From: Ruegeria sp. A3M17
Lineage (GTDB): Bacteria; Pseudomonadota; Alphaproteobacteria; Rhodobacterales; Rhodobacteraceae
NCBI RefSeq assembly: GCF_003318255.1
Contig: NZ_QOCF01000003.1
Coordinates: forward strand, 1-64,000
Direction: 5' to 3'
DNA length: 64,000 nt
The first letter of the stretch is position 1, and each line of letters begins with the position of its first letter. The notes under the pieces are model-generated. The model did no database searches and was not told where the DNA came from. It saw only the letters and a program-made list of their open reading frames with translations. A program made the position numbers and the translations under genes. Of this stretch, positions 1-10,993 are shown piece after piece.

Positions 1-375
1 TCATTCTTGGTCGCCCCCACCGTCGATCATGCTTTTTTTAAGCAAGCGGAGTTCAAGCGTTTGTTCCGCGACGACCTCCTTCAGATCACGGGCTTCGCGG
101 CGCAGATCTTTGACCTCATCGGTCGTGGCGGCACGGGCCGTGTCGCCAGCCAAGCGCCGCTTACCGGCTTCCATGAAATCCTTGGACCATTTGTAGTAAA
201 CGCCCTGGGAAATCCCCTCGCGGCGGCACAGCTCCGCAATGCTGTCCTCGCCCTTCAGACCGTCCAGCACGATCCTGATCTTCTCTTCAGCTGTATATTG
301 CTTGCGCGTCGCGCGGCGGATGTCTTTGACAACTTTCTCGCCGTGGCTCTGCTTGGTTCCGGGTTTCTTTCTCAT
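1..375 (-). CDS. IS3-family transposase OrfA (helix-turn-helix)
   Basis: A 124-residue OrfA-type protein that binds the element ends and, after a -1 frameshift, normally supplies the N-terminus of the OrfAB transposase. The sequence shows a helix-turn-helix at about residues 25-65 (motifs IRIVLDGLKGEDSIAELCRR and GISQGVYYKWSK), then a leucine-rich coiled coil ending in LRLLKKSM. This is the IS3 OrfA layout. The start is set at ATG 375 because AAGGAG (plus 381-386) lies five bases upstream; the GTG at 381 would overlap that site. The stop is the first codon of the window, so OrfB with the catalytic DDE triad would lie to the left and is not visible. Confidence 0.9.
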   Translation of the reverse strand: MRKKPGTKQSHGEKVVKDIRRATRKQYTAEEKIRIVLDGLKGEDSIAELCRREGISQGVYYKWSKDFMEAGKRRLAGDTARAATTDEVKDLRREARDLKEVVAEQTLELRLLKKSMIDGGGDQE

Positions 376-460
376 CTCCACTCCTTGGCGGTTACGATGA
401 GCCAGAAACCCTCTCTTATCAAATCGACCTATTTGGACCCATAAGCGCTGACGTCAGACA
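1..460 (-). mobile_element. IS3-family insertion sequence, right-hand part only
   Basis: The OrfA gene plus about 85 bases of upstream sequence. On the minus strand the likely terminal inverted repeat begins TGTCTGACGTCAGCGC at about position 460. It starts with TG, as IS3 ends do, but the matching end is outside the window, so the boundary is an inference. The element marks the left side of the accessory region. Confidence 0.6.
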
Positions 461-588: not shown

Positions 589-2331
589 TCAATCATCCCC
601 TACGCCCACATCACCGCTACTGTCGTATGGCAGGTCTGGCAGCTGATCGATGAAACCCAGCATCTCAAAAGGAAGGCTCTTGAGTGCTTCAGGCGGTTCG
701 GTCAGAGCAATGGTTTCGGGTCGTGCATTTTCGATACCGCCATAAGCTGGACCATGTGCACGTGGCATATGTGGGTATTTTTCGATCCACAGTTCATGGC
801 GTGCACGCATCCTGCGGAAGGGTTCCTTGAAGTGAAATCCTCCGACGACAATTGGATTTACCTCACGGTGATCATTGTAAAGATCATACACCGAGGTGAG
901 ACCTGTCTCAGCTTGAGAGTCTCCGATCCAGTGAGTTTTGTACTGATCCTTTACGCTGGCACCTAGGTTCGGACCGGAATAGATCATCACATTATCTCGT
1001 CGGCTGTACCCGTCACCGTTCAGCAGCAGCGACGTCTGATCTACCCCATCAATGACACGGTCAGTCGGCACGTTTTCCAATGCACCTGCGAGGCGCGCAA
1101 AGGTCGTGAACAGATCGCTCACATGAACGATATCGCCGGCGATTTGACCAGGTTCAATGACACCGGGCCACCAGGCTTGCGCTGAAACCCGAACACCACC
1201 CTCAAGGAAGTCGCCCTTGCCACCGCGGAAGGGGCCTTCGCCCAGACCAGCACCAGCGGGCGGGTTGTGCGTCATCGGGCCATTGTCAGACATGGCGATG
1301 AGGAGAGTATTTTCCGCGATGCCGAGTTCCTTCAGGAGCGCAACCAATTGCCCAGCATCGGGATCAAGATACTTTTCATAAGATTCACCGACCAAACCGC
1401 GTTGCAAGGATACTTTCTGAGGTTCGGGCAAAAAGCTCACCCACAAAGGCCACCAGGCAGCATAGAAAGGTTTGCCAGCTTCGGCGTTCTTACGAATAAA
1501 TGCGAAAGTTCTGTCACGCGCCTCATCATCAAATTTGCGGTAGCACTCGGCCTCGATGCCGCACCACTCGCGTGTAGCGCCGCCTTTTTCGCCTTCTGCA
1601 TAAAAGACATAACCCTCCTGAACGAAGGTGTTGTCTTTGACATAGCGGTCCTCCGCTAGCATTTCACGCTTCAGACCTACGACAGCGTTTGCCGCTTCGG
1701 CCTGCACGTTCCAAAGACTAACTGATTGATTGTAGAGCGAAAAGAATGCCTCGTCATAGCCTTGCTTGTGGGGGAAGGATTCTTCGAGGTCACCCAAATG
1801 CGTTTTTCCAAAGAAACCGGTTGCGTAGCCCGCATCACTTAAGACCTCGGCAATGGTCACATTTTCAGCGGCGATGCCCTCGTATTCTACTGGGAATCCA
1901 ACGGCCTCCATGCCGGAGCGGACAGCATATTGTCCTGTCCACGCGGCAGCGCGTGTTGGTGTACATGATGGTTCGGTGTACATCCGCGTGAAGAGCATGC
2001 CTTCTGCTGCTAGTTCGTTCAAATTCGGTGTCTCATAACCTCTGATTTGCTGCATTGCGGGAATGCCGACAGCTCCAAAAGGTTGGTCGTCCCACATTAG
2101 GTGGATAAGATTTGGAGGCGTGCCATATTGCGCTTTAAGCTCGGCAAGCTTTGCATCGATTTCGCCGTCTTCTACGGCCCAGACATTGCCGTTTTGCGCC
2201 TCCAGAATGTAGTATTCCGCATCATGGATGATTTGATTTTCTTGAGCATAGGAAGTCGCCGGGGCACAAATGCACACGATACCACTCAATAATAAGTCTG
2301 CGCGCAATGCGCGGTGAAAAGGGGGGGGCAT
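589..2331 (-). CDS. Exported sulfatase (formylglycine-dependent type)
   Basis: A 580-residue sulfatase-family hydrolase, expected to cleave sulfate esters in the periplasm. It has an N-terminal signal sequence ending near SYAQ (residue 30), a metal-binding DDQ at residues 81-83, and the maturation motif CTPTR at residues 123-127. Cys123 in that motif would be converted to formylglycine by a sulfatase-modifying enzyme that is not in this window. GKTHLG and SDNGP are later conserved sulfatase motifs. The start is ATG 2331, since AGGAG lies seven bases upstream and the signal peptide follows directly; an earlier in-frame start at 2382 has neither. It is the last gene of a minus-strand set with the beta-barrel and ribbon-helix-helix genes. 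The substrate is unknown. Confidence 0.9.
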   Translation of the reverse strand: MPPPFHRALRADLLLSGIVCICAPATSYAQENQIIHDAEYYILEAQNGNVWAVEDGEIDAKLAELKAQYGTPPNLIHLMWDDQPFGAVGIPAMQQIRGYETPNLNELAAEGMLFTRMYTEPSCTPTRAAAWTGQYAVRSGMEAVGFPVEYEGIAAENVTIAEVLSDAGYATGFFGKTHLGDLEESFPHKQGYDEAFFSLYNQSVSLWNVQAEAANAVVGLKREMLAEDRYVKDNTFVQEGYVFYAEGEKGGATREWCGIEAECYRKFDDEARDRTFAFIRKNAEAGKPFYAAWWPLWVSFLPEPQKVSLQRGLVGESYEKYLDPDAGQLVALLKELGIAENTLLIAMSDNGPMTHNPPAGAGLGEGPFRGGKGDFLEGGVRVSAQAWWPGVIEPGQIAGDIVHVSDLFTTFARLAGALENVPTDRVIDGVDQTSLLLNGDGYSRRDNVMIYSGPNLGASVKDQYKTHWIGDSQAETGLTSVYDLYNDHREVNPIVVGGFHFKEPFRRMRARHELWIEKYPHMPRAHGPAYGGIENARPETIALTEPPEALKSLPFEMLGFIDQLPDLPYDSSGDVGVGDD

Positions 2332-2396
2332 ATGTTGGCTCCTGAAACTGGTCCGTTGGTGACTTGGTTGGAGCGCCGCCAATGCGACGCAATTTA

Positions 2397-3191
2397 CTAA
2401 AACGATAACGTGTAACCAATGAATGGACCGAACTGATCTACGTCATATGCAAACTCACCGTCAGAGCGTGTTGTCGAATAATCGATGCTGTAATAGCGCA
2501 AGCCGAGCTTGATCGACCCACGATCGCCTAGGGAGTAATCTGCCCCAAGAGTCGCACTCCACTGCAAATCATCGCCATTCACTCCGAAACCACCTGCATC
2601 AATCGAAGCACCGCCCGTCCAGCGGTCATTGATCTGCCACGCATATCGTGCGCCTATCACTGGTTCCCACCATGCTTCGGTGCCCCCTAGATTGGCACCC
2701 GGTCCAGGTCCACCGCTTATGGCGACAGTCTGCTTCAGGCTGTTATACCGGACACCAGCAGAAAGATCGAAAGAACGTTTGCGACCAGCAGCGTCGGTGC
2801 CGCCTAACACGCGGTATGCGCCAAGCAACCCGATCCAGTATTGCGTTACATCTACATCTGCTGTGGCGTTGCCCATTCCGATTGGGATGGTCTGTGTATG
2901 ACCAAGATCAAGATAGTTGGCATCAACGATTATTCCGAAATCGCCCTGCCATGCCTCATACCGACCGGATATGCCAAAATCGAGCAGATCGAGTGCGTCG
3001 CTGAAATCAAGGTCGATTGGGACTGACTGACCAGCGACTGTTGACGTGCCGTCAGTCGAAGTCGGCAGGAACAAATAAAACGTTAGATCATGACTCCAGT
3101 CTTCGCTGAAACTTAGTACTGCAGATTCTGCATATACCGTTGTCGGAAGTAATGCGGCGCATACAATTGCCGCATATCGCTTGCTTTTCAT
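2397..3191 (-). CDS. Predicted outer-membrane beta-barrel protein
   Basis: A 264-residue protein with a clear signal peptide (first about 21 residues, cleavage after VYA). Alternating amphipathic strands and a C-terminal aromatic ending (GYTLSF) are typical of outer-membrane barrels. Repeated strand patterns such as LGADYSLGDRGSIKLGLRYY support this. It may pass or bind a substrate of the adjacent sulfatase, which is an inference from position. The SD CGGAGCGAGAAAAA precedes ATG 3191, and both the SD and the signal-peptide codons are nearly identical to those of the hydrolase gene starting at 5081 on the other strand. It sits 17 bases after the ribbon-helix-helix gene and about 65 bases before the sulfatase. 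Confidence 0.8.
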   Translation of the reverse strand: MKSKRYAAIVCAALLPTTVYAESAVLSFSEDWSHDLTFYLFLPTSTDGTSTVAGQSVPIDLDFSDALDLLDFGISGRYEAWQGDFGIIVDANYLDLGHTQTIPIGMGNATADVDVTQYWIGLLGAYRVLGGTDAAGRKRSFDLSAGVRYNSLKQTVAISGGPGPGANLGGTEAWWEPVIGARYAWQINDRWTGGASIDAGGFGVNGDDLQWSATLGADYSLGDRGSIKLGLRYYSIDYSTTRSDGEFAYDVDQFGPFIGYTLSF

Positions 3192-3208
3192 TTTTTCTCG
3201 CTCCGTCT

Positions 3209-3460
3209 TTAGATGTTGCCGGAAGATCTCGCCAAATCTGTGTGTGGATCGGCAGAATTTCCAATATTCAGCTCGTTGCGCAAAAGGTCATGGCAGGTTG
3301 CCGATATTGATCGATTGGTTTCATTTGCCAGCTGCGCAAGGGCGTCGCGTTCCTCTCGGGTCAAGAAAGTGACAACCCGCTCAGTCCGCGCTTTGGCCTT
3401 TGGCAGCAGCGGACGGCCCAAACTCTTCCTGACCTTTTCTCGTGTTTTCACTTGACCCAT
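3209..3460 (-). CDS. Ribbon-helix-helix DNA-binding protein (small regulator)
   Basis: An 83-residue basic protein. The central part reads as a ribbon-helix-helix fold: a short strand (RVVTFL), helix A (TREERDALAQLANETN) and helix B (SISATCHDLLRNEL). Such proteins are dimeric operator-binding repressors, often autoregulatory. It is the first gene of the set with the barrel and sulfatase genes, 17 bases upstream of the former, so it probably controls its own operon. A broken copy, with the same codon 50 changed from CGA to TGA, lies at 4801. The divergent AraC gene starts about 100 bases away. Which genes it regulates is not shown by the sequence. Confidence 0.75.
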   Translation of the reverse strand: MGQVKTREKVRKSLGRPLLPKAKARTERVVTFLTREERDALAQLANETNRSISATCHDLLRNELNIGNSADPHTDLARSSGNI

Positions 3461-3480
3461 CCTGAGGCGCCGGTTCTTAC

Positions 3481-3492
3481 TTTACCGGTAAA
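3481..3492. promoter_or_regulatory. Perfect palindrome TTTACCGGTAAA, candidate operator (copy A)
   Basis: A 12-base perfect palindrome in the interval between the divergent ribbon-helix-helix gene and the AraC gene (taking the AraC start as 3566). It recurs exactly in the inverted copy at 4769-4780. A TTGACC at 3452-3457 could serve as a -35 element pointing at the AraC gene. The binding protein (ribbon-helix-helix or AraC) is an inference. Confidence 0.5.
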
Positions 3493-3565
3493 ATGCCGGA
3501 GAATTCAGATCGACCACATCAGAAATTCGCCAATTCCAGTAGAACCGGAGTCGACGTCAGGCAAA

Positions 3566-4474
3566 ATGGAAGTGACATTGCGTGACCCAAACCAGGCAGA
3601 GGAAATCACGCCATGGCAGATGAATTTTCGTCAGATTGAGCCAGGTGAGTTACAAACCCGATTGACAGTTGTGGGAGATGAGACGTTTTCAGTAACTGAA
3701 ATTGCGCTTTCGCTTGCTGTCCACCAGCAGGGTATTCCTCCTGCAGGCACATTGACCTTTGGGCGTGCGACAGAAGACAGACTACATCGTTGGCAGGGGC
3801 GAAAGTCGCAGCGCTCTCAACTCTTATCATTTGGGACAATCAACGGTTTTGACAGCGTCAGTCACGCCGGTTTCATCGGCAACGTGTTGTCTTTTGATGA
3901 TTGTTACCTCGAAAAGATGTCCGATGAACTGCGCCTTGAGTTGCCCGAAGCCATGCGCTCAGCTGGTCAATTCGAAGCCGGTGGCTCCGTCTCTGACTTG
4001 ATAAAGGTAGACCAGCTACTGGTTGCGATTAAACGTGATCCAAAGATCCTGCAAGGCGATGATGCAAGAGACACGCTTGCGCTGCTTGTTCTTTTGCTTG
4101 CGACGAACGCCACAATTCATGAGGACAAAAGCAGGCTGCGGCATCGTCTTGCAACATTGAAGTTATCAATGGGCCTGATGGAAACCTACGCAGATGAGCC
4201 ACTTGCTATCGGAGAAATCTGCAGGCTTGCACGCTGCTCTTGGCGCACACTGGATCGTGTATTCAAAGAAGAATTTGGTATAGGCCCGAAGGCTTATTAC
4301 ATGCGGCTTCGTCTCGGACGTGCCCGTGCCGACTTGCTAAGCGCGAAAGACAATAAGAGCGTTGTTGATGTCGCCAACTTCTGGGGGTTTTGGCATATGG
4401 GACAATTCGCTCGAGACTACAAGAAGATGTACGGTGAGCTGCCCTCATCAACATTGGCTAGTCAACTCGCTTGA
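3566..4474 (+). CDS. AraC-family transcriptional regulator
   Basis: A 302-residue AraC/XylS-type regulator. The C-terminal third holds the two helix-turn-helix motifs (IGEICRLARCSWRTLDRVFK and VVDVANFWGFWHMGQFARDY), followed by the usual KKMYGELPS tail. The N-terminal domain is of unknown ligand. ATG 3566 is preferred: the upstream in-frame alternative is a TTG at 3452 that lies inside the start region of the divergent small regulator and would erase the promoter interval. It stands between the sulfatase set and the hydrolase/phosphatase set and may control both. A truncated, inverted copy of its first 40-odd codons lies at 4609-4695. Confidence 0.85.
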   Translation: MEVTLRDPNQAEEITPWQMNFRQIEPGELQTRLTVVGDETFSVTEIALSLAVHQQGIPPAGTLTFGRATEDRLHRWQGRKSQRSQLLSFGTINGFDSVSHAGFIGNVLSFDDCYLEKMSDELRLELPEAMRSAGQFEAGGSVSDLIKVDQLLVAIKRDPKILQGDDARDTLALLVLLLATNATIHEDKSRLRHRLATLKLSMGLMETYADEPLAIGEICRLARCSWRTLDRVFKEEFGIGPKAYYMRLRLGRARADLLSAKDNKSVVDVANFWGFWHMGQFARDYKKMYGELPSSTLASQLA

Positions 4475-4551
4475 ACAGTGCCGCCAACCGCAAAGTGAAG
4501 AGCGGTTGGAATTGGTCATGTAGTCAATCGCATATCAACAGGGGAAATGCA

Positions 4552-4695
4552 TTAGATGGGGTGGTTGCCGCCATCTCTCGACGGCATCGCGATGTGCCAT
4601 AGTGGAAGCAGATCACCCGGAGCAATTTGGTGAAAACTCGTCTGCCATGGCGTGATTTCTTCTACCTGGTTTGGGTCACGCAGTGTCACTTCCAT
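4552..4695 (-). pseudogene. Truncated copy of the AraC regulator N-terminus
   Basis: The first 30 codons from ATG 4695 match those of the AraC gene at 3566 (shared motifs MEVTLRDPNQ and EEITPWQ). After GDL the similarity stops and the frame ends 17 codons later. It lacks any DNA-binding domain and is read as a remnant of an inverted duplication. The promoter-proximal DNA, including the palindrome, is conserved. Confidence 0.8.
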
Positions 4696-4768
4696 TTTAT
4701 CCGACATCGACCCGGGATCTGATGGTATTGGCGAATTTCTGATGTGGTCGATCTGAATTCTCCAGTAT

Positions 4769-4780
4769 TTTACCGGTAAA
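4769..4780. promoter_or_regulatory. Perfect palindrome TTTACCGGTAAA, candidate operator (copy B)
   Basis: Identical to the palindrome at 3481-3492 and at the equivalent place in the inverted cassette, upstream of the plus-strand hydrolase and phosphatase genes. Its retention although both flanking regulator reading frames are damaged fits a cis-acting site still in use. Confidence 0.5.
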
Positions 4781-4800
4781 GTTAGAATCGGTAACTCAGG

Positions 4801-4995
4801 ATGGGTCATGCAAAAATGAAAGACGAGATCAGGAAGAGTTTGGGGAGTACGTTGTTGCTAGGGGCCAAAGCTCGAACTGAGCGGGTTTTCACTTTCCTAA
4901 CAAGAGCGGAGCACGACGCTCCTGCGCTGCTGGCGGAGGAAGCTAATTGATCAACATCGTCCACCTGCCACGATCTTTTGCGCAACGAGCTGAAT
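4801..4995 (+). pseudogene. Ribbon-helix-helix regulator, nonsense-mutated copy
   Basis: From ATG 4801 the frame aligns without gaps to the intact gene at 3209-3460 for 49 codons. Codon 50 is then TGA (4948-4950), where the intact copy has CGA (Arg). After the stop the same frame continues with STSSTCHDLLRNELN, so the loss is a single point mutation. The start, SD-side sequence and spacing are kept. The shortened product would lack helix B and should not fold as a dimer. Confidence 0.8.
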
Positions 4996-5080
4996 AATAG
5001 AAGTTCTGACGATGCGCGCACAAACGCCAGCTGGGTCAAGTGGGAACCGCAGGCATCACCCAAATACGGAGCGAGAAAAA

Positions 5081-6322
5081 ATGGAAAGAAAGCGACTTGC
5101 GGCAATTGTATGCGCCGCAATACTTCCATCGACATTGTTCGCTGAAGCCGAAGATGCATCGAATTGGTCCGCCACTGAACCCTTTCCTTCCCAAACTGTC
5201 TACTTTCCCGGAACCGAGACGCTCCATCCAGACGAAATGCGCGTTGTAGCTTGTGGCACAGGAATGCCCCAACCAAGAATGAAACAGGCTGGCTCGTGTT
5301 TTCTGGTCGAGCTGGGCAATGGCGACAAGTTCATTTTCGATTTGGGCAAGGGCTCTTCTGATCATATAGCGGCTTTGGGAATTCCAACCGACCAACTCAA
5401 CAAAGTGTTTATCAGCCACCTGCACTTTGACCACGCCGGGGATTTTCCGGCCTTCTGGCTTACACGCGGTGTGAATGCGGCGCGCCAACCCTTGTTCCTG
5501 TGGGGACCAGGGGGTGGGCAAAACCCTAAATGGGGAATTCGGGGCTGGACAGAAACCATCAAGCAGGCATGGGCTTGGGACGTCGCAACGCGTGAATCGT
5601 CAGGCGATCCGCGTTCTACCCAGCTTACAGTCACAGAGCTTGATTGGAAAAAGGTCAACAACCTCTTTTATGAAGAGAATGGAGTTAAGATTTACTCGAT
5701 TCCAACAATCCACATCGACCAGTCAATTGGGTATATTCTCGAATGGAATGGTCTCAAATTTGCCTATTCAGGGGATACGGCACCAAACAAATGGTTTCTG
5801 GAGCACGCTTCCGGTGCGGATTTTGCCATTCACGAATCCATGCTTCCGCCAGAATTGTGGCTCGAAAAGTATAGTATGAGTCCTCAGGCTGCGGTCATGT
5901 CTGGGACACAAGGGCACACAACACCAAGAGCCTTTGGCAAGATTATGGACATCGCGAGACCACGAATGGCGGTCGCTTCACATTTCCAAAACGACTTTGA
6001 CACAGCTTCGCTGATGGAAAAAGAGATCCGCGTTCATTATGACGGCCCGTTGAGTTTGGCGACGGACTTCATGGTCTGGAATATTACAAAAGAGAATATC
6101 ACAACGCGGATGACGGTTCCAAACCCTGAGAGCTATCCGCCTCCTGCGCAGGTTGCCGCAGAACCGCCTATCGTTGATGAGAACACTTATCAATGGGACC
6201 CATTCAGTTTTTCGGGGTTTGAGCCGCATACAAGCGCTGTGACAAATGAAGTCGTCAAGGAATTCAATGAGCAGCAGGGGACAGATATCGAACCCATTCT
6301 TAGTAATATTCCTTTCAAGTAA
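5081..6322 (+). CDS. Exported metallo-beta-lactamase-fold hydrolase
   Basis: A 413-residue protein with a signal peptide (cleavage near LFA, residue 21) and the zinc motif HLHFDHAGD (His113, His115, Asp117, His118). Further candidate ligands are His233-type and Asp in YSGDTAPN. The long C-terminal half resembles a family sometimes labelled GntH-like, but that name is from memory and the reaction is unknown. The start is ATG 5081, with GGAG nine bases upstream; the frame is open back to 5012 but only over the regulator remnant. The leader and SD are shared with the barrel gene at 3191. It is followed at 111 bases by the phosphatase-superfamily gene and was probably co-transcribed with it. Confidence 0.85.
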   Translation: MERKRLAAIVCAAILPSTLFAEAEDASNWSATEPFPSQTVYFPGTETLHPDEMRVVACGTGMPQPRMKQAGSCFLVELGNGDKFIFDLGKGSSDHIAALGIPTDQLNKVFISHLHFDHAGDFPAFWLTRGVNAARQPLFLWGPGGGQNPKWGIRGWTETIKQAWAWDVATRESSGDPRSTQLTVTELDWKKVNNLFYEENGVKIYSIPTIHIDQSIGYILEWNGLKFAYSGDTAPNKWFLEHASGADFAIHESMLPPELWLEKYSMSPQAAVMSGTQGHTTPRAFGKIMDIARPRMAVASHFQNDFDTASLMEKEIRVHYDGPLSLATDFMVWNITKENITTRMTVPNPESYPPPAQVAAEPPIVDENTYQWDPFSFSGFEPHTSAVTNEVVKEFNEQQGTDIEPILSNIPFK

Positions 6323-6433
6323 TGATAGCTTTTCTGTTGCAGCGGGCTGGCCCGCCATCAGGGAAACCGAAAAGAAAGCCATTTCCTGTGAATGCGGCCT
6401 TTGCCAAATGAAAAACTTACTATTGGATTGAAA

Positions 6434-8113
6434 ATGACTTCTAAATCTTCCGCTCTGTTGTCACTGGCCAGCGTGCTTTCCATTGCAGCTTCCATTGCGA
6501 GCGCAGCTGATAACTCTGATATTCGTCTAATCGTGCAGATTACAGTCGATGGTCTGCGCGGGGATCTCCTAAGTCGCTACGAACCCAGCTTTGGTCCCAA
6601 CGGATTCCGCCGCCTAACAGAAGTTGGTGTTTGGTACACTGATGCTCACCATCTCCATGCAAATACAGAAACAGTGGTTGGTCATGCGACGCTTGCGACC
6701 GGTGCGCATCCCTCAGAGCATGGGATGATAGGCAACATCTGGTTTAACCGCGCAGATGGTCGACTTGGCTACAATATTGAAGACCCGGATTATTTGATGC
6801 TTCCTGTTCCCGGTTTCAAAGGACAGGGTGACCAGCTTGATCCGAGCCAGACTGTTGCAGAATCGTCTGGCAGGTCGCCACGAAACCTTCTTGCATCAAC
6901 CTTCGGAGATGAACTTTACAAATCGAACAATGGTCGTTCGAAAGTCATTGGGATTTCGAGTAAAGATCGGTCGGCTGTGGCAATGGCAGGCCATGTCGGT
7001 GACGCCTATTGGATGTCGGTTGAAACCGGCGCGTATGAAACCAGCTCATACTACTTTGATACCTATCCGGACTGGGTGCTCAAATGGAACGCCAAACGCC
7101 CAGCTGATGCCGCAATCGGGTCCAAATGGGTTCTTCACGATCCAATTGATACATACCTCTTGGCTAACAACGATGACCGTCCTTACGAGGCTGACCTTAA
7201 AGGGTTCGGGCGCACTTTCCCACATTCATACGGTGATCCAGCCGACGGCCTCTATTATACGCAAGTGGTTATTGGCCCACTTGGCGATCAACTGACCGCT
7301 TCGTTTGGAAAAGCAGCAATTTTGGGCGAAGGGCTTGGGCTGGATGATGATGTCGATTACCTCAGCCTCAGCTTCTCCGGAGTCGACGCTACAAATCACT
7401 TCTTTGGCCCATCAAGCCTGGAAAACGAGGAAATGGTTCGCATGCTTGATCGAACACTTGCGGATCTGTTCGCCTTTATTGACGAAAACGTGGGGCGCGA
7501 GAATGTGCTGTATCTGTTGTCAGCTGATCACGGGATGCCAGAAATGCCCGAGCACATGGCAGACCACGGGCATACGACGGCACGCGCGGGACAGACGGTT
7601 CTAGCGGATCAGTTGAACGTAGAAATTCGCGAAACGCTTGGCGTCGATAAGGCTATTAAGGCATTCTTTCGCCCTTATATCTATTTGGACGAGGATGCGA
7701 TTGAGACTGCCAATGTCAACAAGCGGGACGTTGAACGGTTGATTGTCGATAGTCTTGCCTCTCGGCCTGGGGTTGCGCTGGCAATGCCGAAGGAGCCGTT
7801 TCCTGAGCAACGCGGAGGATTTTTGGAATCGCCAATCCGCAACAACTACCATCCTGCCCGATCAGGTGACATTTATGTTGTGCAATCCCCCTATTCCTTC
7901 CTGCTTGATCCAGGCGCCGTAGCTGTGATGCACGGGTCGCCTTGGCGATATGATACACATGTACCAATTTTGTTCGCTGGCCCTGGAATCGAGGCAGGTC
8001 AAGTTGCCCGGCGTGTAGGAACCGTGGATGTAGCGGTCACTCTCAGCAGGATGTTCGGAACGACTATCCCCAGCGGTGCAGCTGGCATCGCCCTTGTTGA
8101 GGTTTTGGATTAA
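6434..8113 (+). CDS. Exported alkaline phosphatase / phosphodiesterase superfamily enzyme
   Basis: A 559-residue protein with a signal peptide (cleavage after ASA, near residue 24). It has the nucleophile region NTETVVGHATLATG with Thr80 at the catalytic position, plus the metal-binding motifs VDGLRGD (Asp39), SGVDATNHFFGP, SADHGMPE and ADHGHT. This is the PafA/nucleotide pyrophosphatase type, acting on phosphomonoesters or phosphodiesters in the periplasm. The start at ATG 6434 gives a clean signal peptide; the frame is open 14 codons further upstream without a better site. With the neighbouring sulfatase and hydrolase it suggests ester scavenging; the substrate is not deducible. Confidence 0.88.
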   Translation: MTSKSSALLSLASVLSIAASIASAADNSDIRLIVQITVDGLRGDLLSRYEPSFGPNGFRRLTEVGVWYTDAHHLHANTETVVGHATLATGAHPSEHGMIGNIWFNRADGRLGYNIEDPDYLMLPVPGFKGQGDQLDPSQTVAESSGRSPRNLLASTFGDELYKSNNGRSKVIGISSKDRSAVAMAGHVGDAYWMSVETGAYETSSYYFDTYPDWVLKWNAKRPADAAIGSKWVLHDPIDTYLLANNDDRPYEADLKGFGRTFPHSYGDPADGLYYTQVVIGPLGDQLTASFGKAAILGEGLGLDDDVDYLSLSFSGVDATNHFFGPSSLENEEMVRMLDRTLADLFAFIDENVGRENVLYLLSADHGMPEMPEHMADHGHTTARAGQTVLADQLNVEIRETLGVDKAIKAFFRPYIYLDEDAIETANVNKRDVERLIVDSLASRPGVALAMPKEPFPEQRGGFLESPIRNNYHPARSGDIYVVQSPYSFLLDPGAVAVMHGSPWRYDTHVPILFAGPGIEAGQVARRVGTVDVAVTLSRMFGTTIPSGAAGIALVEVLD

Positions 8114-8631
8114 TACTTTAGAGGAGCCCCATAGGTGCAAGTGTTTTTCGAAGACGCCAATACAACGCAGTCTTAGGCCACTGGAACCGGAGCCATCCAC
8201 CTCAACCGCAATTGGCAGCTACTACCTGAAACAATGTTCTCGGTGCCAGATAAGAAATTCGGCCTACGGGCGTTCCGCTGGCCCGTTGGCTGCTTCGCCA
8301 AAATCGCACTCAATATTTGCAACTGCGGCGAAGGTTCGGAATCCGCCCTGATCATAGGACGCAGCGACCTTTTTCGAGGTCGCCTTTGGGCTCTCCCGGC
8401 ACATTCGCCGCGAGATCCATGAACGACCGTTTCGGGATGGAGCGCCTTTCGCGGCGTGGCGCACGAACTGGCAAGACGCGGACAAAGCCACCGTTGCACT
8501 TAGGCCTCTGGATGCCCGGTTTCAGCCCAAAGCAGACGTTCACAACTAGACTACGCAGGTTCCAAGGCAGGGGCTAAGCCGACATAGAATTGCGGAAGCA
8601 GTTCTTTGGCTTCGACCCGAAACACAGTGCT
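8114..8631. other. Gene-free stretch (518 bases)
   Basis: Several overlapping short frames are open, but none has a credible SD, start or recognisable product. The composition is more GC-rich than the genes to its left. It may be decayed coding DNA or a dispersed Roseobacter repeat; neither can be shown here. Confidence 0.4.
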
Positions 8632-9941: not shown

Positions 9942-10933
9942 TCAGATGTCCTTTTTGATTTTACTCGGAGGTATTCCAGTCCACCCCTTAAATGCGTGCG
10001 CGAAGCTTGTTGCGTCAGAGTAGCCGAGCATTTCTGCCACTCGCGTCACACTGTGATCGCCTTCCTTCAACAATTCTTCCGCGCGATTGCGCTTCAGATC
10101 CGCGAGCAGCTTGCCAAGAGTCGTGCCCTCTTTCCTGAGTTTTCGAGCTAGTTGCTGCTCAGAGAGTCCAAAGATTTCAGCCGCCTTTTTGTTGCTTAGA
10201 AAGCCCGCATCCACGTGTGGTCTGAGGGCTTCGCTGACACTCTCTGTAAGGGACCGAGGGGGCTTGCGTTCACCACTTTCATCCGCAGGGATCTGGAAGT
10301 ACCCCTCCTTTGAGAACTCCAAGTTCAACCATGCAGCGGGAAACGCAATACGATGTCCAAATTTGTCCCCTTTGATTGGTTTAGAACCTTTGAAATCGCC
10401 GGGCAGTGCTTTGGGATCGCTTACGGTGATCAGTGTTTCTTTGGATGACCAACTTGTTCCGGCACATTTTGCGACAATCTCGGTAAACAAGCAGGTAAAA
10501 AAAGCGTCTATCTGCGCGGGAATAAAAGGCGTCTCAAAATACCTTTTCCTGATATTACCGCAGACTTACCATGAATATCCAGGTGGTGTTCTGTTGAACT
10601 TGAATGCTCAGTCGCGACGATAACGACCGACGTCAAAAATGAGCCGAGCGTTTTTGCATCTTTGGTCGCGTCGACCAAAGGCGGCCAGTTTGAAACCGCC
10701 ATTTTAGCGCCAATTTTGCTAAGCAAATGAAGGTCTTTTGTTGCGGCGGCTGCTTCTTCAAAAAACTGATACATGACAATTGCGTGGATGTATGCATCGG
10801 GGTCGTCGAAAGCGGCGCGAGAAATACCCAAGCGCGTCAGTATTTCATCGGTGTCTTCATAAACAGCATCCAGCGTGCTCAAGATCGGTTTCGCAGTGGA
10901 TAACCGGATCAAGGGCTGTGCCGGGCCATTCAT
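9942..10933 (-). pseudogene. AraC-family regulator (OruR-like), frameshifted
   Basis: Two frames join into one regulator. From ATG 10933 (GAGGG six bases upstream) the frame encodes the N-terminal ligand-type domain to about 10545, then ends in LLFPRR. The next frame carries on as RYFETPFIPAQIDAFFTCLF into a domain with a helix-turn-helix (KKAAEIFGLSEQQLARKLRK) and an AraC signature (VTRVAEMLGYSDATSFAHAF). One missing A in an A run (plus 10544-10547, four where five are needed) accounts for the break. It may be a real mutation or a sequencing error; otherwise the gene is complete. Confidence 0.85.
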
Positions 10934-10993
10934 GTTCGACCCTCGGAATGTGCAAGGCTCATTTTCCACCTCGTGGCTATGGCATGAATCCAA

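What the first reader, a model, noticed from the sequence alone, without database searches (positions are those of the whole stretch)
3129..5143. Inverted duplication of a divergent regulatory cassette around an AraC gene
The blocks 3129-3652 and 4609-5143 are inverted copies. Each has the leader and SD of an exported protein gene, a ribbon-helix-helix gene and the AraC start. One copy is intact; the other has a nonsense mutation in the small regulator and a cut AraC gene. The barrel/sulfatase set and the hydrolase/phosphatase set are thus each fed by the same cassette and could be controlled by one intact regulator pair. This looks like an unusual two-armed regulon built by local inversion-duplication.
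Basis: partly seen in the sequence, partly recalled or inferred. Interest (0 to 1): 0.75.

Follow-up and report, generated by a model that had tools for sequence, protein, structure and literature searches.

The report
Duplicated regulatory switch serving two operons
In a marine Ruegeria-type bacterium a short control region (two regulator genes around a shared DNA switch) was copied in mirror image; one copy kept its regulators, the other lost them but still carries the switch in front of a different set of exported enzymes, which looks like one operon capturing another's control.

Summary
Arms 3145-3648 and 4613-5127 are inverted copies, 413 of 517 alignment columns identical. Arm A has an intact ribbon-helix-helix (RHH) gene and an intact AraC gene. 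Arm B has a stop inside its RHH copy (4948-4950) and about 68 AraC codons. The homology fades at the signal-peptide end of both outer genes.

New evidence: RHH and AraC form a conserved divergent pair. In 54 genus genomes all 17 non-own RHH matches adjoin an AraC match and a sulfatase gene. The palindrome TTTACCGGTAAA lies between the two regulators; 7 of those 17 loci carry it (first base T or A). The own 4.44-Mb genome holds it exactly twice, once per arm.

So arm A is the ordinary sulfatase cassette. Arm B most likely put an exported metallo-hydrolase and a phosphatase behind a second copy of that control region, with regulators now supplied only from arm A. Duplication and decay are shown; shared control is inferred, without binding or expression data. 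Which outer gene donated the leader is unresolved. A new variant of a known process (promoter capture by duplication), built on a regulator pair for which my searches found no paper.

The parts
589..2382 (-). sulfatase gene, outer end of arm A
   Evidence: PF00884, E 7.4e-35
2397..3191 (-). exported outer-membrane barrel protein; its signal peptide (from 3191 down) lies in arm A
   Evidence: PF13505 E 3e-4, below its cut-off; nearest relatives 46.7% in L081/L084
3145..3648 (.). arm A of the inverted duplication
   Evidence: 413 of 517 columns identical to 4613-5127
3209..3460 (-). intact ribbon-helix-helix (Arc-like) gene, 83 codons
   Evidence: 17 non-own relatives in 54 genus genomes, each beside AraC
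3481..3492 (.). palindrome TTTACCGGTAAA, likely operator, arm A
   Evidence: one of exactly two in the own genome; same place in seven relatives
3512..3531 (+). conserved block GACCACATCAGAAATTCGCC at the AraC start, arm A
   Evidence: only the two arms match without mismatch in the own genome
3566..4474 (+). intact AraC-family gene (an in-frame extension reaches back to TTG at 3452)
   Evidence: PF12833 E 2.9e-20; database protein P0001 of 302 aa
4475..4612 (.). spacer between intact AraC and cut AraC; no AraC remnant found in it
4613..5127 (.). arm B of the inverted duplication
4606..4809 (-). AraC remnant, about 68 codons, 76% identical to the intact protein
4730..4749 (-). conserved block GACCACATCAGAAATTCGCC, arm B
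4769..4780 (.). palindrome TTTACCGGTAAA, likely operator, arm B
4801..5025 (+). decayed RHH copy with an internal stop at 4948-4950
   Evidence: 63% identity, 1 TGA inside
5081..6322 (+). exported metallo-beta-lactamase-fold hydrolase; its signal peptide lies in arm B
   Evidence: PF00753; NF041257 387 bits, cut-off 333
6434..8113 (+). exported alkaline-phosphatase-like protein
   Evidence: PF01663 E 7.6e-36; PafA model 384.7 bits, below its cut-off 650

Best explanation
An ordinary AraC / RHH / sulfatase control cassette was duplicated in inverted orientation. The copied piece runs from inside the AraC gene to the end of an exported protein's signal peptide, so two unrelated outer genes now start with the same promoter region, ribosome-binding site and signal peptide. 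The regulators of arm A stayed intact; those of arm B decayed, as one set sufficed. Arm B now works as a bare promoter-operator-leader for the hydrolase and phosphatase genes. Most likely working: AraC, answering an unknown signal, binds the conserved block next to its own start and activates transcription outward through RHH; RHH, first product of arm A's operon, binds the palindrome and damps both arms. Shown: duplication, decay, conserved pair, conserved motifs. Inferred: which protein binds which motif, activation or repression, and joint control of both arms.
For: Arms 413/517 identical. RHH and AraC stay together: all 17 non-own RHH matches in 54 genus genomes lie within about 120 bases of an AraC match, and all 17 are next to a sulfatase gene. 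Palindrome exactly twice in 4.44 Mb, once per arm, reversed control 0, about 0.05 expected from window composition; same place in seven relatives, extended motif once in each of those seven and twice here. Identity between arms is clustered on this region: 53 of 55 columns at 3534-3480 (permutation P 0.018) and an unbroken run of 37 (P 0.014). Arm-B RHH copy decays at sites that relatives keep: in the core relatives side with A at 10 sites, with B at 2, tie at 2. The hydrolase and the phosphatase are not neighbours at the matches listed for relatives.
Against: No binding or expression data. Ten of the 17 related RHH loci lack the palindrome. The bare 12-mer also occurs at seven places in six other genus genomes, only one of them (G417) at this cassette, and the reversed control pattern matches in eight genomes. 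The two own sites are copies of one another, so they are not independent evidence, and P 0.014-0.018 is modest. The conserved block codes for the AraC start in relatives. No promoter-like site was found in either gap, and the region has fewer (3) than shuffles (mean 5.4). A distant AraC relative without RHH faces a hydrolase of this family in G422, so AraC beside such a hydrolase is not unique.
Confidence: 0.55

Rival explanations
1. Passive relic. The duplication is real, but arm B is only decaying; hydrolase and phosphatase use another promoter or are constitutive, and the intact palindrome is a leftover.
For: About 20% divergence between arms; both arm-B regulators dead; the box upstream of AraC changed in arm B; no promoter-like site in either gap.
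Against: The least changed stretch is the one with palindrome and block, and ribosome-binding site plus signal peptide in front of the hydrolase stay close to arm A (33 of 40 and 34 of 37 in the last two segments).
Confidence: 0.25
2. Reverse direction. The cassette and leader first served the hydrolase; the barrel-sulfatase set captured them. In a one-step duplication-with-inversion the copy still joined to the whole AraC gene (arm A) would be the moved one.
For: Barrels most like the window's (46.7%, against 29-35% for the five barrels at sulfatase loci) sit behind a hydrolase of this family in L081 and L084; the order barrel-then-sulfatase differs from relatives, where the sulfatase follows RHH.
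Against: All 17 non-own RHH loci serve a sulfatase; eight close hydrolase loci read have no RHH or AraC; among 78 non-own hydrolase matches only G422 lies within 10 kb of an AraC match (lists compared).
Confidence: 0.2
3. Two complete cassettes of separate origin came to face each other, and one lost most of its AraC gene.
For: AraC genes point at each other with a 138-base spacer; deletion alone would give the cut gene.
Against: The arms resemble each other more (RHH 63%, AraC start 76%, DNA 80%) than any relative found (RHH at best 66% over 60% of its length, AraC 53%), and they share the same leader although the outer genes are unrelated.
Confidence: 0.12

Closest known systems
Promoter capture by deletion or duplication (citrate transporter in E. 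coli, his genes in Salmonella; passages of PMC11111574)
   Same: A gene comes under another gene's promoter through duplication
   Different: The passages name deletion or tandem duplication; here the copy is inverted and brings operator, ribosome-binding site and signal peptide of a regulated divergent unit
DNA duplication associated with inversion (passages of PMC8963470, citing Furuta 2011, not opened; PMC3046158 passages and first part of one section)
   Same: Inverted copies at a rearrangement, a regulator gene broken at the breakpoint, mosaic genes
   Different: No ancestor without the event is available here, so inversion of the middle piece cannot be shown
AraC/XylS-type activator divergent to its target operon (general knowledge)
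   Same: AraC-type HTH and a shared divergent gap
   Different: An RHH gene is the first gene of the target operon, and the second target arm lacks working regulators
Arc/CopG/AmrZ-type RHH repressors
   Same: Strand-like segment plus two predicted helices; PHROG Arc-like match
   Different: Very distant in sequence; found here only beside AraC genes in the genus searched

Membership tests
AraC/XylS regulators | C-terminal AraC-type HTH domain above the curated cut-off | tested here: met
   PF12833 72.8 bits, cut-off 33.6
EutR (closest NCBIfam model) | curated score cut-off 319 | tested here: not met
   84.2 bits
Ribbon-helix-helix regulators | RHH fold | tested here: inconclusive
   PHROG Arc-like E 2.6e-6; best fold matches Arc, AmrZ, ORF56, but E 0.8 or worse and mean pLDDT 69.8; no Pfam match
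Ribbon-helix-helix regulators | binds a symmetric operator as a dimer | not testable with these tools
   palindrome present in the gap; binding untested
DNA duplication associated with inversion | inverted copies flanking a piece | tested here: met
DNA duplication associated with inversion | middle piece inverted relative to an ancestor | not testable with these tools
   no single-arm relative with the same flanks was found
Promoter capture | second gene set expressed from the copied promoter | not testable with these tools
   needs transcript data
GntH hydrolase (NF041257) | curated score cut-off 333 | tested here: met
   387.1 bits; a family label only, relatives occur in 32 of 54 genus genomes, own included, and guanitoxin genes were not searched for
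PafA alkaline phosphatase (NF042991) | curated score cut-off 650 | tested here: not met
   384.7 bits

The most novel reading that the evidence does not exclude
An RHH-AraC regulator pair, on which I found no paper, controls sulfatase operons across Ruegeria, AraC activating and RHH acting as feedback repressor at TTACCGGTAA. In this lineage an inverted duplication of its promoter, operator and signal peptide made a two-armed regulon that couples sulfate-ester and phosphate-ester (plus metallo-hydrolase) exported enzymes under one intact pair, the second arm's regulators being pseudogenes already: a natural snapshot of a regulon growing in cis.
Probability: 0.4. Interest if true: 0.6.

Novelty: new variant of a known kind. 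Interest (0 to 1): 0.45.

Why it matters
If true, it shows how a local regulator can gain a second target operon in one step, with promoter, operator and export signal moved together. It also gives two natural copies of an operator, one with and one without working regulator genes, to test how the pair works, and it points to a conserved RHH-AraC pair beside Ruegeria sulfatase genes on which searches found no paper.

Tried and rejected
Chance similarity: rejected. Similarity limited to the signal peptide: rejected, the whole piece aligns. Further copies in the genome: none found; nine other AraC matches cover only the region around the DNA-binding domain, and RHH matches only the two arms at E 0.001. 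Missing AraC part in the spacer: not found. Viral origin: no confirmed relative in the viral collection (close-relative search). G440 AraC (51%) as a close comparison: dropped, the gene lacks its N-terminal part, and no RHH or sulfatase was found nearby. P0002/P0122, the nearest pair (both with a longest contig of 588,575 bases): its DNA was not found in genome contigs, so its gap is unseen, except that P0122 begins MQFTGKV, as the palindrome would read in that frame. Hydrolase-phosphatase pair elsewhere: none of 14 non-own phosphatase matches lies within 10 kb of a hydrolase match (lists compared). Papers: none with RHH + AraC + sulfatase + divergent; two with Ruegeria + sulfatase + AraC, neither opened; one with RHH + AraC family + divergently transcribed, on type VI secretion, listing only; the palindrome in one paper on a CRISPR switch, listing only; some searches were on duplication and promoter capture. 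A dN/dS routine was written into but never run, so no dN/dS is claimed.

Full report
Observation. 3145-3648 and the reverse complement of 4613-5127 align at 413 of 517 columns (score 509.5; best of 200 shuffles 30). Beyond both ends local scores do not exceed shuffles. The aligned piece runs from inside the AraC gene, through the AraC/RHH gap and the RHH gene, to the signal-peptide part of the outer genes. The outer genes, a barrel and a metallo-beta-lactamase-fold hydrolase, belong to different families.

State of the two arms. Arm A: RHH gene of 83 codons and a complete AraC gene. Arm B: a stop at 4948-4950 inside the RHH copy and only about 68 AraC codons. Where A and B differ in the RHH core (my cut, from the GRP to the SISA motif), ten relatives side with A at 10 sites, with B at 2, and tie at 2; over the whole alignment the counts are 12, 7 and 14. 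Four residues shared by all ten relatives are lost in B. For the AraC start the counts are 7, 3 and 7, against five relatives. I read arm B's regulators as pseudogenes.

The cassette in relatives. The window is the start of contig C2 of a 4.44-Mb genome. The genus is Ruegeria: contigs of two genomes in the genus search have the lengths and match places of plasmids of Ruegeria AD91A and THAF33. AraC relatives occur in 16 of 54 genus genomes, own included, and only in the own genome among 394 family genomes at E 1e-25. RHH relatives occur in 14 of 54, own included. All 17 non-own RHH matches lie within about 120 bases of one of the 19 non-own AraC matches, and all 17 are next to a sulfatase gene (nine loci, three, the other five). 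The two AraC matches without RHH are G440, a gene without its N-terminal part, and G422, where a distant AraC (28%) faces a hydrolase related at 35%. Hydrolase relatives occur in 32 of 54 genomes, own included. Eight close loci (47-54%) were read for RHH and AraC, and none has them (four of the eight stretches are 8.6 to 19 kb, the others 19.5 kb). Among 78 non-own hydrolase matches only G422 lies within 10 kb of an AraC match, comparing the lists. So the sulfatase arm is the ordinary one, and the hydrolase/phosphatase arm is particular to this genome among those searched.

The likely switch. The AraC/RHH gap holds the perfect palindrome TTTACCGGTAAA. The own genome has it only at 3481-3492 and 4769-4780 (reversed control 0; about 0.05 expected from window composition). 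Seven relatives have it with first base T or A at the same place. The extended motif TTACCGGTAAANTRYYRGR is found without mismatch once in each of these seven and twice in the own genome; one-mismatch matches occur at three other places, and the reversed control gives six, so one-mismatch matches are background. Against specificity, the bare 12-mer also occurs at seven places in six other genus genomes, of which only the one in G417 is at this cassette; the other six were not read, and the reversed control matches in eight genomes. Ten of the 17 related RHH loci lack the palindrome: four gaps were read (L011, L012; L121, L122), the other six have no match. A second block, GACCACATCARAAATTCGCC, lies at the AraC start. 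It is letter-identical in both arms; elsewhere in the own genome the only match has three mismatches. Part of it (ACATCAAAAATTCG) persists in a Labrenzia locus with AraC and sulfatase, without a detectable RHH and without the palindrome. The block codes for the AraC start in relatives, so coding and regulatory conservation cannot be separated there; in arm B the coding reason is gone, yet a 37-base run is unchanged (permutation P 0.014; best 55-column window 53 of 55, P 0.018).

Mechanism. I read the block as the AraC site and the palindrome as the RHH site, since AraC-type sites are usually asymmetric and RHH sites symmetric (recalled, not tested); the Labrenzia locus, which lacks RHH and the palindrome together, fits. 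AraC would activate outward transcription, and RHH as first product would limit it. In arm B the box CACTTGAC, present upstream of AraC in seven relatives and arm A, reads TGCATGAC, which fits loss of the AraC-ward promoter with the outward one kept. A consensus scan found no promoter-like site in either gap and fewer in 2000-8500 than in shuffles (3 against 5.4), and no terminator-like site on the + strand between 4780 and 5081; neither is evidence of function.

Origin. The shared leader means that one outer gene took promoter region, ribosome-binding site and export signal from the other. Relatives favour the sulfatase side as donor. Against that, the barrel's nearest relatives found (46.7%) lie behind a hydrolase in L081 and L084 (in L081 next to a gene that looks like a TetR regulator by eye), the five barrels at sulfatase loci match at 29-35%, and the order barrel-then-sulfatase is unlike the relatives. 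I leave the direction open.

Known or new. Promoter capture by duplication is known (passages), as is duplication with inversion (passages; first part of one section). The RHH-AraC-sulfatase cassette and its palindrome did not turn up, which cover only openly licensed papers.

Verdict. A real, well-supported structural finding with a plausible but untested regulatory reading; of moderate interest.

Noticed in passing
window 9942-10993 (-): A second AraC-type regulator (weak QhpR-like N-terminal part, HTH_18 C-terminal part) lies in two ORFs in different frames, so it looks frameshifted.
   Followed up: partly
window 3509-3511, and the same place in arm B: Where relatives start AraC with ATG or TTG (M-D-x-I-K-N-S), both arms read ATC, so this AraC uses another start or an unusual one.
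   Followed up: no
window 1-381 (-): IS3-type transposase gene at the very start of the contig, about 200 bases beyond the end of the sulfatase gene.
   Followed up: no
L027 1504-3768 (G422): A distant AraC relative faces a hydrolase of this family, with no RHH found, so AraC beside such hydrolases may have arisen more than once.
   Followed up: partly
L081 9027-13483 and L084 (G440, G401): Two divergent hydrolase genes, the second followed by a barrel 46.7% identical to the window's; in L081 a TetR-like gene (by eye) lies between them.
   Followed up: partly
G000 contig C13 259231-260871 (L137): The own genome has a second phosphatase of this kind, 65% identical, far from any such cassette match.
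   Followed up: no
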